Source of the DNA: Bacteroides sp.
GTDB taxonomy: Bacteria > Bacteroidota > Bacteroidia > Bacteroidales > Bacteroidaceae
Direction: 5' to 3'
DNA: 64,000 bases
NCBI GenBank assembly: GCA_023665805.1
Contig: JAMPDJ010000004.1
Span: 62,001 to 126,000, forward strand
Shown here: piece after piece, positions 16,987 through 19,967 of the stretch
Numbering within the stretch: the stretch's first letter is position 1
Layout of the letters: the number at the start of each line of letters is the position of its first letter
Position numbers and translations under genes: made by a program
Notes under the pieces: generated by a model
What the model was told of the DNA's origin: nothing
What the model saw: the letters and a program-made list of their open reading frames with translations, nothing else
Database searches by the model: none

Positions 16987-18153
16987 TTACTTGATTCTCT
17001 GACCGGCAACGGTGTACTTCTTGCCAGCTTTCAGCACAACCACTTTGCCATTCTCCATCACCTTGCCGGCAACGGCAGCATTCTCGGCATCAATGCCGTC
17101 GATGCCAACGGACACAAGAGAAACAATCTCGTTGTTGTAGTTGAACTCGTAGATATCGCCGAACTTCTTCATCACACCCTTTACAACCACGGAAGAGCCA
17201 ACCTCCAGGTCTTCGATGGAGGTGAACTGCTCACCACCTACGTTCAAGCCGCTGTAGCACATGAACTGCTGTGTAGCCTCGGTACCGTCAGTTGAAATGT
17301 AGTATGTGATTGAACCGTACTTCTCGTTGAAGCTTTCCACCTTGGAAACAATACCCTTGATGTACACGTTGGCGATCAAGCCCTTACCGGCCTCAATGAG
17401 AGCAACGGCCTCCTCAACGGTGTAAGCGGTCTCAGGAGTGTTGGCAATGCTCTTGACGGTAACATCATAGGTCTTGCTGGCTGTCAGACCCTTATAGGTA
17501 GCGGTAACAGTAACCGTCTTTGTGTCCTCGGCAATCACTGCCGGCTCACAGGTCCAAGAGGCCGCATCGGTAACATCCTTGGTGGTCTCGTCCGAGAATA
17601 TGGCTGTAGCCACCAGACCTTCGATGCCAAAGGCATCACCGACATAACACTCGGTCTGGACAGGAGTAGTCTCGGTCAACTTCAAGGCTGTAGCTTCGGG
17701 AGCGTTATCGCCCACGACGTATGTCACCTTGATAGTCTCCATACGCACCTGGTTCAACCCTGCGACAAATGATACGGTTTCAGCGTTGCCGGTCCATGTG
17801 CCAACCTTATCAGCATAGGCGTAATCGCCTGTAGACCATGAATTGTAGCAGCCGGGACCCCACTTTGCATCGTTAGCTTCAGAACAAACAAACTCAATGG
17901 ATGTGATATTGCCCTCAGCCACAGACACGGTGAATGTCTGGCTCTTATAAGCGCGATACTGGCCTACACCGTTGTATGTTCCCAATACACCTTGACCAGT
18001 AGCAATGGTTACCCCCCCCTTGTTGCCGGTCTGCGCACCTGCAGTTGTCGACCACAGATTATCTTCACCGGTGATGGTTACTACCTTCTCCTCGGCAAAC
18101 AGAGAAGCCGTGCCAATAAACATGGCTGCGAATAAAAGTAAAAGTTTTCTCAT
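16987..18153 (-). CDS. secreted Ig-like/OB-fold multidomain protein with C-terminal sorting-like tail
   Basis: A 388-residue exported protein: signal peptide MRKLLLLFAAMFIGTASLFA; a beta-sandwich module (about 21-150); a bacterial Ig-like module about residues 155-235 (VTVTATYKGLTASKTYDVTV); an OB-fold-like module about 240-345 (AYTVEEAVALIEAGKGLIANVYIKGIVSK, then VVVKGVMKKFGDIYEFNYNNEIVSL); and a short tail ending KVVVLKAGKKYTVAGQRIK. The tail resembles Bacteroidetes secretion/sorting tails. A G8 homopolymer (plus-strand C8, 18012-18019) spans codons 45-48, so slippage there would frameshift the protein. A strong promoter lies at 18229-18258. Function unknown. Confidence 0.75.
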   Translation of the reverse strand: MRKLLLLFAAMFIGTASLFAEEKVVTITGEDNLWSTTAGAQTGNKGGVTIATGQGVLGTYNGVGQYRAYKSQTFTVSVAEGNITSIEFVCSEANDAKWGPGCYNSWSTGDYAYADKVGTWTGNAETVSFVAGLNQVRMETIKVTYVVGDNAPEATALKLTETTPVQTECYVGDAFGIEGLVATAIFSDETTKDVTDAASWTCEPAVIAEDTKTVTVTATYKGLTASKTYDVTVKSIANTPETAYTVEEAVALIEAGKGLIANVYIKGIVSKVESFNEKYGSITYYISTDGTEATQQFMCYSGLNVGGEQFTSIEDLEVGSSVVVKGVMKKFGDIYEFNYNNEIVSLVSVGIDGIDAENAAVAGKVMENGKVVVLKAGKKYTVAGQRIK

Positions 18154-18258: not shown

Positions 18259-18790
18259 AGCATCATGACAGAAATATATTTCGCACGCGCACGTTTGTGC
18301 ACATTCATACTATACGCAGAGAGCAGAGAAAGCACACACAGGCATGGATATGTGCCGTCACGAGGCCTCCCGTCTCGTGCCTGATGGCACTAACCGGAAA
18401 TGACCTCGGTCCACTAACGGAGATGTCAGATTTTTTGATATGTTTCCACGGCATCCTTAACACGCGGTATCGCCAAACTCAAAAAAAGACAGCCAATGAG
18501 ACGACGACACATCTGCTTCTAACGGTCTTAGGCGCAACCACAAAGAGCCATGCGCGGTTACAAACCCGCACAAAAGCGACATTGGGATTCACATCCGCCC
18601 GAATCACGGATTGGCTGAAGCATTGTCCGGGCCGAGACTACAGTATTGTCGAAACAGCGTCAATAGTATTGTCGGGATCGAAAGAACAGTATTGTCAAGA
18701 TGACGACAATACTATTGTCAAATCGCGGTATCGGGAGAGGGAAAAACGGGATTACGCCATGACATAACCACATATAAGTATTTTTCAACC
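18237..18790. other. 554-bp gene-free interval between the Ig/OB-fold gene and the AraC-type gene
   Basis: No convincing gene is seen here. The frame at 18297-18767 has no start context, no recognisable motif and runs through a 23-bp periodic repeat, which would change reading frame in every unit. The interval holds the promoter of the gene to the left, a pair of imperfect CACTAAC-GGArATG copies (about 18386-18420) and the iteron-like array at 18619-18719. Confidence 0.7.
18619..18719 (+). repeat. array of five short motifs (consensus AGTATTGTC) at exact 23-bp intervals
   Basis: AGTATTGTC occurs exactly at 18642, 18665 and 18688; one-mismatch copies lie at 18619 (AGCATTGTC) and 18711 (ACTATTGTC). 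All five starts are 23 bp apart. Bases just before the motif are partly conserved (CAAT or ACTAC-like), and the last copy completes a perfect palindrome GACAATA-C-TATTGTC (18705-18719). The bases between motifs are not conserved. The regular spacing of about two helical turns and the palindromic core look like stacked protein-binding sites rather than coding sequence. Confidence 0.85.
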
Positions 18791-19927
18791 TCAATCCACC
18801 CGAACCTTTTGCGTCAGAAAGTCGTCCAGCCCGCATCCCTCTATGCGTTCAAAACACAAACGCGCCGTCTTGATGGAACCGAAGCCCACCACCAAGGCAT
18901 CCGCCACGCCACGCACCTCGCCACGGGCAATCAGACGTTTCAACTCCTGCACACGATATGCGGTAATGTATTCGTGCACATTGTTGTGTCCCTGGCTGCG
19001 CAGACACTGCAACATCAGCTGGCGGTTGATGCCGGTCTCTTCACACAGGCGGTCGCGGGTAAAACCGTTGCTCGTCCACTTGTCACGATTACGCTGCATC
19101 CACACCTGCACCTGCAAATAACGGCGCTGGTTCGCCTCATTGAAGTCAACCTGCTTCTGCTCGTCCTCCCGGCTGTCCTCGGCCGCACTTTCCGCAAGTT
19201 CCGCTTGCCCGTCCACGCCAAGGCTGATATCCGGATGCGGCATCTTGATGACAAGCATCTCCATGGAATGGCACACCCAGAAAAAGTTGACCAAAGTGAA
19301 CAAGACCATGTATGCACAGAGCAAGAGGGAATGATAGTCGAGAGCCGTATACAGATACAGTATCACGGACAGGAACAACAAAACCACATATGCAATAAGA
19401 GACACCGGGAACACAGCCTTGAAAGCCAGGCGATGAGGCAGCACAAGGATATTCAGCACATAATAGACACCCAGGAGCAGAGCCAGAATCCTCAGTACGA
19501 AGTCAAGAGAAAATATGTTGTCGAACAGCTCGGCGGCCGAATAGACCTTGGTCAGCTGGGCGTAAGGGTACATGGCCACGACATACGCAATGCCCAGGAC
19601 AAATATGGGAGAGGCATATCTGACCATACGCCCCCACTGCAAGTATCCGGGCATCATGATGCCCAAAGAGTAGATGCTCTGCAAATAAGTTCCCACCACA
19701 AGCATGAGCAACATGTAAGGATTGAGCAAACCGGGATTGCCGTGCGCCACGTTCTCGCCATACATGGCGACGATAGCGATCACGCAAAAAAAGATTGCCA
19801 ACATGGCCACCAGACTAAGATATTGCACACGGTGACGCGCCAATATGCCTGTTATGCACATTCCCACGAAATGCGCGGTCGCGCAACAGGCAAAAGTCAA
19901 AGTGATTATGGTACCTTCCCAGCTCAT
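18791..19927 (-). CDS. membrane-anchored AraC-type transcriptional regulator
   Basis: A 378-residue protein with an N-terminal membrane part of six to seven helices (about residues 5-225), a linker, and a C-terminal AraC-type DNA-binding domain (about 265-378, with DRLCEETGINRQLMLQCLRSQG as the first HTH and DALVVGFGSIKTARLCFERIEG as the second). The start at 19927 (MSWEGTIIT) is chosen because a strong promoter (TTTG-N20-TAccTTTG) covers 19936-19967, inside the frame used by the alternative start at 19957. This leaves a leader of only a few bases. The ligand sensed by the membrane domain is unknown. Confidence 0.78.
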   Translation of the reverse strand: MSWEGTIITLTFACCATAHFVGMCITGILARHRVQYLSLVAMLAIFFCVIAIVAMYGENVAHGNPGLLNPYMLLMLVVGTYLQSIYSLGIMMPGYLQWGRMVRYASPIFVLGIAYVVAMYPYAQLTKVYSAAELFDNIFSLDFVLRILALLLGVYYVLNILVLPHRLAFKAVFPVSLIAYVVLLFLSVILYLYTALDYHSLLLCAYMVLFTLVNFFWVCHSMEMLVIKMPHPDISLGVDGQAELAESAAEDSREDEQKQVDFNEANQRRYLQVQVWMQRNRDKWTSNGFTRDRLCEETGINRQLMLQCLRSQGHNNVHEYITAYRVQELKRLIARGEVRGVADALVVGFGSIKTARLCFERIEGCGLDDFLTQKVRVD

Positions 19928-19935
19928 TGTCGCAG

Positions 19936-19967
19936 CAAAGGTAGAGAAAAATTCCATAACCGACAAA
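19936..19967 (-). promoter_or_regulatory. Bacteroidetes promoter directly before the AraC-type regulator
   Basis: On the minus strand TTTG (19967-19964) is followed after 20 bp by TACCTTTG (19943-19936). Only 8 bp separate the box from the ATG at 19927, so the mRNA would be nearly leaderless. Confidence 0.7.

What the first reader, a model, noticed from the sequence alone, without database searches (positions are those of the whole stretch)
18619..18719. Iteron-like array: AGTATTGTC every 23 bp, five times
Three exact and two single-mismatch copies of a 9-mer start at 18619, 18642, 18665, 18688 and 18711, exactly 23 bp apart, with unconserved bases between. The last copy completes a perfect palindrome, GACAATA-C-TATTGTC. 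A 23-bp period cannot be a protein repeat and is near two helical turns, so cooperative binding of a dimeric protein is a plausible reading. No regulator or replication gene for such sites is obvious nearby other than the AraC-type protein next to it.
Basis: partly seen in the sequence, partly recalled or inferred. Interest (0 to 1): 0.72.

Follow-up and report, generated by a model that had tools for sequence, protein, structure and literature searches.

The report
Species-specific phased palindrome arrays between genes
This relative of Prevotella carries about 50 short arrays of one palindrome spaced exactly 23 bases apart, between genes in all 49 examined, while its closest relative found carries another palindrome spaced 22 bases apart, in five of 29 sampled cases in the same gap between genes; each array is likely a docking platform for a still unknown DNA-binding protein, predicted to mark where genes end.

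Summary
The window array is one of about 50 intergenic arrays in this genome, each of 2-6 (mostly 3-4) copies of a 15-bp near-palindrome, GACNATAGTATTGTC, centred exactly 23 bp apart: 158 sites in phase, 10 off phase, background predicting 10.4. They avoid gene starts and favour gene ends. The closest relative found has another palindrome, ATAAACCGGTTTAT, at 22 bp; 26 of 29 sampled arrays there have exactly four sites, and no such pair occurs in this genome. Five of the 29 lie in the same orthologous gap as an array here. In random genus samples 22 bp is the commonest non-coding tandem-repeat period (21 of 50 events), with differing units. So geometry, and partly position, persist while sequence is replaced. 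Covariation and wobble tests give no sign of RNA structure. The neighbouring AraC-type protein and ParB are unlikely binders: both are nearly unchanged where the motif is wholly different. Best reading: phased docking arrays for an unidentified dimeric DNA-binding protein, predicted to act at transcription-unit ends. Closest described relative: BrickBuilt of Porphyromonas gingivalis.

The parts
18613..18627 (+). site 1, degenerate (9 of 14 consensus positions): left half 3 of 7, right (inward) half 6 of 7, so in effect an inward half-site at the array's end
18636..18650 (+). palindromic site 2, GACTACAGTATTGTC (12 of 14)
18659..18673 (+). palindromic site 3, GTCAATAGTATTGTC (13 of 14)
18682..18696 (+). 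palindromic site 4, AAGAACAGTATTGTC (11 of 14)
18705..18719 (+). palindromic site 5, GACAATACTATTGTC (perfect palindrome, 14 of 14)
18613..18719 (.). whole array: five site centres at 18620, 18643, 18666, 18689, 18712 (23-bp period) separated by variable 8-bp spacers 18628-18635, 18651-18658, 18674-18681, 18697-18704
   Evidence: the only tandem event that the scan found in the window
18791..19966 (-). gene with membrane-type N-terminal part (read from the sequence) and weak AraC-type HTH (PF12833, E 2.1e-5, below gathering cut-off); the array lies 71 bp past its 3' end; matches at E<=1e-20 in 110 of 139 genus genomes
16987..18153 (-). neighbouring gene, start read as 18123 or 18153, 459-489 bp from the array; weak OB-fold and Big_3 matches, both below cut-off

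Best explanation
The window array is one of about 50 arrays of a 15-bp palindrome spaced exactly 23 bp in this genome, each likely a docking platform on which dimers of a still unidentified DNA-binding protein would line up on one face of the helix, predicted to mark the ends of transcription units. Shown: exact phase, intergenic location, bias to gene 3' ends, absence of covariation, a different palindrome at 22-bp period in the closest relative found, partial conservation of position. Inferred: that a protein binds, that it is dimeric and cooperative, that the two-turn spacing puts the dimers on one face, and that the platform acts as a boundary (roadblock, topological insulator or nucleoid anchor) rather than on a promoter. 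The constants appear to be half-sites of about 7 bp and an 8-bp spacer, so that a 14-bp palindrome gives period 22 and a 15-bp one gives 23; this rule was read from G000 and G061 only.
For: Two-copy pattern 41 times in G000, reversed control 0; 89 exact ATAGTATTGTC, control 3, all 89 inside 48 fetched loci. In those 48 loci 158 palindrome-like sites in phase and 10 off phase, 10.4 expected from background. 0 of 49 arrays lie in a predicted gene, though L068 overlaps the end of a weakly predicted ORF by 25 bp; the nearest gene start is 121 bp away and 17 of 21 tandem gaps have the array nearer the upstream gene's stop; in G061 0 of 29 lie in a gene and 14 of 14 tandem gaps are nearer the stop. 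No compensatory covariation about either dyad; GU 24 against AC 20 in transcript orientation. G061: 191 forward and 188 reverse hits of a palindrome pair at 22 bp with up to 2 mismatches, controls 2 and 2; 0 in G000; 26 of 29 arrays with exactly four sites, no off-phase site at 11 of 14 within 200 bp. Genus samples, 712,606 bp from 24 genomes: of 50 non-coding tandem events 21 have period 22, 3 period 21, 1 period 23, next commonest period 7 with 8; of 16 coding events none has period 21-23. Consensus palindromicity at least 8 of 11 pairs in 22 of 50 arrays against 2.8% of shuffles. Arrays of period 22 or 23 past the AraC-type gene in 12 of the 28 callable loci nearest to G000's protein, against 22 of 407 gene 3' ends by a similar but not identical criterion (11 of 27 without G000, p 5e-7, relatedness not corrected).
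Against: No binder identified; the two candidates tested look excluded. No expression or binding data. Position is less clearly kept further out: 3 of 20 loci that I chose from more distant genus members have an array past the gene (p 0.10). Arrays do not replace detectable intrinsic terminators: 3 of 27 gene ends with an array and 4 of 46 without have a terminator-like site. Some genomes carry more than one array motif (G016, G075, G094), which one binder would not explain. 28 of 50 array consensuses score 7 or less of 11, within the range of shuffles. The window array itself has no inward half-site on its right side and its spacers do not show the mirror polarity. Gene calls are from my own codon-usage predictor and the genomes are drafts.
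Confidence: 0.5

Rival explanations
1. A selfish, non-autonomous repeat (REP/MITE-like or BrickBuilt-like) spread by an unknown transposition or copying machinery, with no service to the host; species differ because different families amplified.
For: Dispersed, intergenic, species-specific, near-identical units in G025 suggesting recent spread; arrays avoid gene starts; some genomes carry several motifs; BrickBuilt in P. gingivalis is described as a MITE-borne 23-nt minisatellite (PMC4596501).
Against: In G000 no conserved flanks beyond about 30 bp past the last full site, so no sign of shared terminal segments; no Y1 transposase (PF01797) match in G000; 47 of 48 loci keep at least two in-phase sites and off-phase sites do not exceed background although spacers have diverged; four sites in 26 of 29 G061 arrays; five orthologous gaps occupied in both species with different motifs.
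Confidence: 0.25
2. RNA-level 3'-end elements: tandem stem-loops (TATTGTC-N8-GACAATA, 7-bp stem, 8-nt loop) that end or protect transcripts.
For: 3'-end location; many arrays end in inward-facing half-sites, as complete stem-loops would.
Against: No compensatory covariation within arrays (spacer-centred 653 observed against 654.4 permuted, with end modules 989 against 987.2; 53 arrays mostly of other genomes 1018 against 1034.7); G-U 24 against A-C 20, no clear excess.
Confidence: 0.1
3. Operators of a gene regulator (a regulon of about 50 operons).
For: Palindromes of operator size; cooperative phasing is typical of repressor arrays (recalled).
Against: Nearest gene start 121 bp away in G000; 9 of 40 gaps in G000 and 8 of 26 in G061 are convergent; flanking genes include unrelated housekeeping genes (groEL, eno, glyA, argS, clp).
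Confidence: 0.1
4. Neutral minisatellites from replication slippage with a preferred step near two helical turns.
For: Period 22-23 favoured whatever the sequence; units near-identical in some arrays of G094 and G154.
Against: Slippage does not by itself give the same unit at about 50 loci of one genome, palindromic units, mirror-polar spacers in the G000 set or four sites in 26 of 29 arrays.
Confidence: 0.05

Closest known systems
BrickBuilt minisatellite/MITE of Porphyromonas gingivalis (PMC4596501; abstract, 12 passages and section 5 read)
   Same: Same order (Bacteroidales, recalled), 23-nt period, no spacers between repeats, always intergenic, 19 dispersed loci, part of the unit variable; the paper also mentions 22-nt repeats. 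Four of the 38 genes it lists beside BrickBuilt (argS, methylmalonyl-CoA mutase, DUF2149, L-PSP) have namesakes among the 89 proteins beside G000 arrays, on the same side in all four; the overlap alone has p about 0.065 with an assumed 2200 genes.
   Different: BrickBuilt has leader and tail segments with IS5-type inverted repeats and 1 to 22.8 repeats; here flank conservation ends about 30 bp past the last full site, G061 has four sites in 26 of 29 arrays, and the unit differs between species while period and partly position persist.
REP/BIME repetitive extragenic palindromes (only listing abstracts of PMC3733652, PMC2817692, PMC1525189 seen)
   Same: Dispersed, extragenic, palindromic, species-specific; location at gene ends is recalled for REPs.
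   Different: Fixed helical phase, two to six sites per array, no Y1/RAYT match in G000, no sign of hairpin selection.
Iterons of replication origins and ParR/ParB centromere arrays (recalled)
   Same: Direct repeats about two helical turns apart, cooperative binding.
   Different: About 50 loci instead of one; ParB is 95% identical between G000 and G061 although motifs differ.
Noc-binding sites and nucleoid occlusion (PMC7383237, PMC8429893, PMC4331003: listing abstracts only)
   Same: Many short sites scattered over a chromosome; ParB/Noc specificity is reported to have switched.
   Different: Here sites come in phased arrays; only one ParB-type HTH match per genome in 13 of 14 genomes, so no Noc-like paralog found in those.

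Membership tests
BrickBuilt | 23-nt tandem unit without spacers between units, intergenic, dispersed | tested here: met
   period 23, 0 of 49 in genes, about 50 loci
BrickBuilt | leader and tail segments with IS5-type terminal inverted repeats | tested here: not met
   information falls to background about 30 bp past the last full site, 96 array ends pooled, scanned to 109 bp
BrickBuilt | same unit sequence | not tested
   unit letters were not in the text I read; no comparison made
BrickBuilt | widely variable repeat number (1 to 22.8) | tested here: not met
   2-6 sites in G000, 38 of 49 with 3 or 4; exactly four in 26 of 29 G061 arrays; other genomes reach more, e.g. about 7 copies in G094
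REP/BIME | associated RAYT (Y1 transposase) | tested here: not met
   PF01797 no match at E<=0.001 in G000, a draft of about 90% completeness
REP/BIME | extragenic location | tested here: met
REP/BIME | hairpin-forming palindrome under structural selection | tested here: not met
   no compensatory changes
REP/BIME | tag at one end of the repeat (GTAG or CGTC super-families) | not tested
   not scanned for
Replication iterons | array at one origin beside an initiator gene | tested here: not met
   about 50 dispersed loci; no initiator recognised by eye among the 89 flanking proteins printed; origin not located
AraC-type operator of the adjacent gene | motif follows the HTH of the neighbouring AraC-type protein | tested here: not met
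   C-terminal 105 residues 86% identical between G000 and G061, motif and period different; G160 and G011 alike, 85%
parS/ParB | site follows the ParB HTH | tested here: not met
   ParB 95% identical over 296 residues between G000 and G061; one match per genome in 13 of 14
Protein-docking DNA platform | a protein that binds the array | not testable with these tools
   needs pull-down or ChIP

The most novel reading that the evidence does not exclude
A genome-wide chromosome-marking system of Bacteroidales: fixed-geometry arrays of 14/15-bp palindromes at transcription-unit ends, read by a dedicated, fast-evolving dimeric protein, whose sites are rewritten genome-wide between closely related species while position and helical phase are kept, a bacterial counterpart of satellite/centromere-protein or PRDM9-type turnover. 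BrickBuilt would be one member of this class.
Probability: 0.35. Interest if true: 0.92.

Novelty: new variant of a known kind. Interest (0 to 1): 0.75.

Why it matters
If true, Bacteroidales genomes carry an unrecognised layer of chromosome organisation defined by geometry, not sequence, so homology searches miss it. It predicts a sequence-specific DNA-binding protein that changes specificity between closely related species together with dozens of sites, and it offers a ready fragment for pull-down. It would also recast the P. gingivalis BrickBuilt minisatellite as one case of a wider class.

Tried and rejected
AraC-type neighbour as binder: rejected, HTH nearly unchanged while motif differs. 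ParB/Noc-like binder: ParB 95% identical between G000 and G061 (in that alignment the G072 row is a wrong reading frame and was not used), one match per genome in 13 of 14, G095 having a second weak one. RAYT/REP: no Y1 transposase in G000. RNA hairpins: no covariation, no clear wobble bias; the site threshold biases the palindrome-centred test downward. Enriched flanking 9-mers turned out to be a separate MITE-like repeat of about 195 bp near some arrays. Terminator replacement: no difference. Rfam: two weak snoRNA matches far below gathering score. Viral contigs: 10 stretches, taken as chance and not analysed. Plasmids: no match to 241 bp. Phylum sample: 1 of 60 genomes with the exact pattern, G000 itself. 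Literature searches; the closest hit was BrickBuilt; in those searches I found no paper on 22/23-bp arrays of changing sequence across Bacteroidales. The count used a faulty projection and was replaced; the '7 of 29' printed there includes two that I drop (L393, hits in a repeat; L404, weak hits), leaving 5 including the locus found through AraC.

Full report
WHAT IS THERE. The five 9-mers are at the stated coordinates and exactly 23 bp apart. The real unit is a 15-bp near-palindrome, GACNATAGTATTGTC, followed by an 8-bp variable spacer; the window has five such sites with centres at 18620, 18643, 18666, 18689 and 18712. The window is part of a 2,663,135-bp draft genome (G000). In G000 the two-copy pattern occurs 41 times against 0 for the reversed control, and ATAGTATTGTC 89 times against 3. 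I examined 49 loci (window plus 48 fetched). L014 and L057 share a 35-bp contig-end overlap and may be one array; two further arrays seen (C14:23798, C22:107498) were not fetched. So: about 50 arrays, one per about 53 kb. Site counts per array are 2 to 6: 22 arrays with 4, 16 with 3, 5 with 5, 5 with 2, 1 with 6 (threshold 9 of 14).

SPACING IS LOCKED. In 48 loci (L051 has no exact seed), sites matching at least 10 of 14 palindrome positions within 200 bp of the seeds number 158 in phase and 10 off phase; the density elsewhere in the loci predicts 10.4. One locus (L048) has a single site at that score. Plus- and minus-strand hits share the same 23-bp register, so the palindrome centre is what is spaced. 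Of 177 in-register sites 104 keep a perfect GTATTGTC on at least one side.

ARRAYS HAVE ENDS AND, AS A SET, SYMMETRY. Past the last site often comes an inward-facing half-site: at the 3' side the left half scores at least 5 of 7 in 20 of 48 arrays and the outward half in 0 of 48; at the 5' side 10 of 48 inward and 2 of 48 outward. Conservation ends about 30 bp past the last full site. The 8-bp spacers are weakly polar and tend to point away from the array middle: of inner spacers not used for training, 32 of 46 left of the middle and 38 of 46 right of it have the expected sign (70 of 92, p 5e-7). The window array is not a good example: its spacers all have the same sign and its right end has no half-site.

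WHERE. No array of 49 lies in a predicted gene; L068 overlaps the end of a weakly predicted ORF by 25 bp (my own codon-usage predictor). Of 40 with both neighbours called, 21 lie in tandem, 10 in divergent and 9 in convergent gaps; the nearest gene start is 121 bp away, and 17 of 21 tandem arrays are nearer the upstream gene's stop. Neighbours include groEL, eno, glyA, argS and clp. In G061, 0 of 29 lie in a gene and 14 of 14 tandem arrays are nearer the stop, with 8 convergent and 4 divergent. In the genus samples the bias is weaker: 7 of 11 tandem arrays nearer the stop, nearest start 74 bp. Convergent gaps are moderately over-represented: 9 of 40 against 10 of 98 background gaps in G000 (p 0.10), 15 of 62 against 32 of 295 with the genus samples (p 0.012).

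THE SEQUENCE CHANGES, THE GEOMETRY STAYS. The exact motif is in 3 of 61 genomes searched (G000, G025, G016). With a looser pattern 16 of 139 genus genomes match (G000 included), some with other units at 23 bp (G094, G106, G109) and some with hits that I regard as unrelated repeats. G061 has the AraC-type protein closest to G000's (82% identity). It has 191 forward and 188 reverse hits of a two-palindrome pattern at 22 bp with up to 2 mismatches (controls 2 and 2); the site is palindromic, so both counts are mostly the same places. G000, G094, G095 and G075 have 0. Its unit is ATAAACCGGTTTAT plus an 8-bp spacer. Of 29 distinct G061 arrays examined (the list of places was cut), 26 have exactly four sites; one with two is cut by a contig end; no off-phase site at 11 of 14 was seen. 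A second, weaker dyad of CCRYGG type lies 22 and 44 bp outside the four sites. A 14-bp palindrome plus 8 gives 22, a 15-bp palindrome plus 8 gives 23; this rule rests on these two species.

GENUS-WIDE. In 40 sampled stretches of the genus (712,606 bp, 24 genomes; four of these genomes had given me the idea), 50 non-coding tandem events were called: period 22 in 21, 21 in 3, 23 in 1; the next commonest was 7 (8 cases). Of 16 coding events none had period 21-23. In 20 stretches from other families of the order (235,809 bp) 3 of 5 non-coding events had period 22 or 23, from two genomes, and one 22-bp array was in a genome outside the order but in the class (L350). Consensus units of 50 arrays are more palindromic than shuffles: at least 8 of 11 pairs in 22 of 50 against 2.8%, at least 9 in 10 of 50 against 0.3%; the other 28 score 7 or less.

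POSITION IS PARTLY KEPT. The AraC-type gene is matched in 110 of 139 genus genomes. I looked at 50 of these loci: the 30 returned, nearest to G000's protein, and 20 that I chose, several from genomes already known to carry arrays. Two (L237, L238) lacked 3' sequence; L233 has a run of N there. Arrays of period 22 or 23 within 400 bp past the gene: 12 of 28 in the first set (G000 included) and 3 of 20 in the second; before the gene 4 of 50; inside the gene none (one event of lag 30). The baseline for gene 3' ends in the genus samples, by a similar but not identical criterion, is 22 of 407. Against it the first set without G000 gives p 5e-7 and the second p 0.10, neither corrected for relatedness. 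At glyA 5 of 30 loci have an array of period 21-23 past the gene and none before it (p 0.03 for 5 of 29); at eno 1 of 7. Comparing G061 with G000 directly, five of 29 G061 arrays lie in the same orthologous gap as a G000 array, with different motif and period: the window (projected midpoint offset 1 bp; found through AraC), L408/L045 (-10), L414/L056 (-10), L389/L054 (44), L386/L053 (-55). Three with orthologous neighbourhoods do not coincide (L379, L387, L412); 18 have no similarity to the G000 array loci and three only weak or repeat hits. The intergenic flanks are too diverged to align base by base.

NOT RNA. Permuting arms within arrays shows no excess of complementary pairs: spacer-centred 653 observed, 654.4 permuted; palindrome-centred 915 against 929.7; 53 arrays mostly of other genomes 1018 against 1034.7. 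In transcript orientation G-U mismatches (24) hardly exceed A-C (20). No terminator-like site was found around the window array, and arrays do not replace such sites in general: 3 of 27 against 4 of 46.

WHO BINDS. Unknown. The AraC-type neighbour is unlikely: its last 105 residues are 86% identical between G000 and G061, with 36 consecutive HTH-region residues identical, although the arrays differ completely; G160 and G011 give the same picture (85%). ParB is 95% identical between G000 and G061, with one match per genome in 13 of 14.

MECHANISM. I commit to a protein-docking platform: dimers of one DNA-binding protein fill the palindromes two turns apart and form a short block past gene ends, which would act as a transcription-unit or topological boundary. 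DNA-level recognition is the better supported part (my estimate 0.75); the boundary role is inference from location. The change of motif with kept position suggests co-evolution of protein and sites, or repeated take-over by new families; the data do not decide.

KNOWN RELATIVES. BrickBuilt of P. gingivalis (PMC4596501; abstract, passages and section 5 read) is a 23-nt intergenic minisatellite at 19 loci. It shares period and niche but has leader, tail, IS5-like ends and 1 to 22.8 repeats. Four of the 38 genes it lists (argS, methylmalonyl-CoA mutase, DUF2149, L-PSP) have namesakes among the 89 proteins beside G000 arrays, on the same side in all four; the overlap alone has p about 0.065 with an assumed 2200 genes, so this is a lead only. 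REP/BIME elements share the niche but not the geometry.

Noticed in passing
L010, L013, L014, L030, L039, L041, L047, L049, L058, L062, L067: A MITE-like repeat of about 195 bp with inverted ends CCCGAATCGGTCATTAGA lies near at least 11 of 49 arrays, at variable distance and orientation; it seems independent of the arrays.
   Followed up: partly
G000 and 60 genus genomes: Enolase was found in only 7 of 61 genus genomes at E<=1e-60, although glyA was found in 58 of 61; a missing or very different enolase in most of the genus is odd.
   Followed up: no
L395-L414, 22 and 44 bp outside the four central sites: In G061 the four central AACCGGTT palindromes are flanked on each side by weaker CCRYGG dyads in the same 22-bp register, so the full array may be a composite of two motifs.
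   Followed up: partly
L018-L028: G025 arrays use hybrid sites (AACCTTA joined to GTATTGTC) and many end in GTCGAT-type caps at 22-bp spacing, as if several half-site types can be combined.
   Followed up: no
G000 contig ends of C5, C7, C9, C23, C28, C34 and several in G025: Several contigs end within 1 kb of an array; assembly breaks may coincide with the arrays.
   Followed up: no
random genus samples: Heptanucleotide tandem repeats are the second commonest non-coding tandem repeats (8 of 50 events).
   Followed up: no
L131, L158, L199 (Prevotella sp. P5-50): A named strain genome carries 23-bp runs with units like GTATTGTCCAACGTTTGGCAAGA on three contigs, a possible test organism.
   Followed up: no
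L195 (record labelled Ruminococcus sp.), L183 (uncultured Bacteroidales): Both show three or more in-register copies of a GTATTGTC-bearing 23-bp unit; the first would lie outside Bacteroidota unless the contig is misbinned.
   Followed up: no
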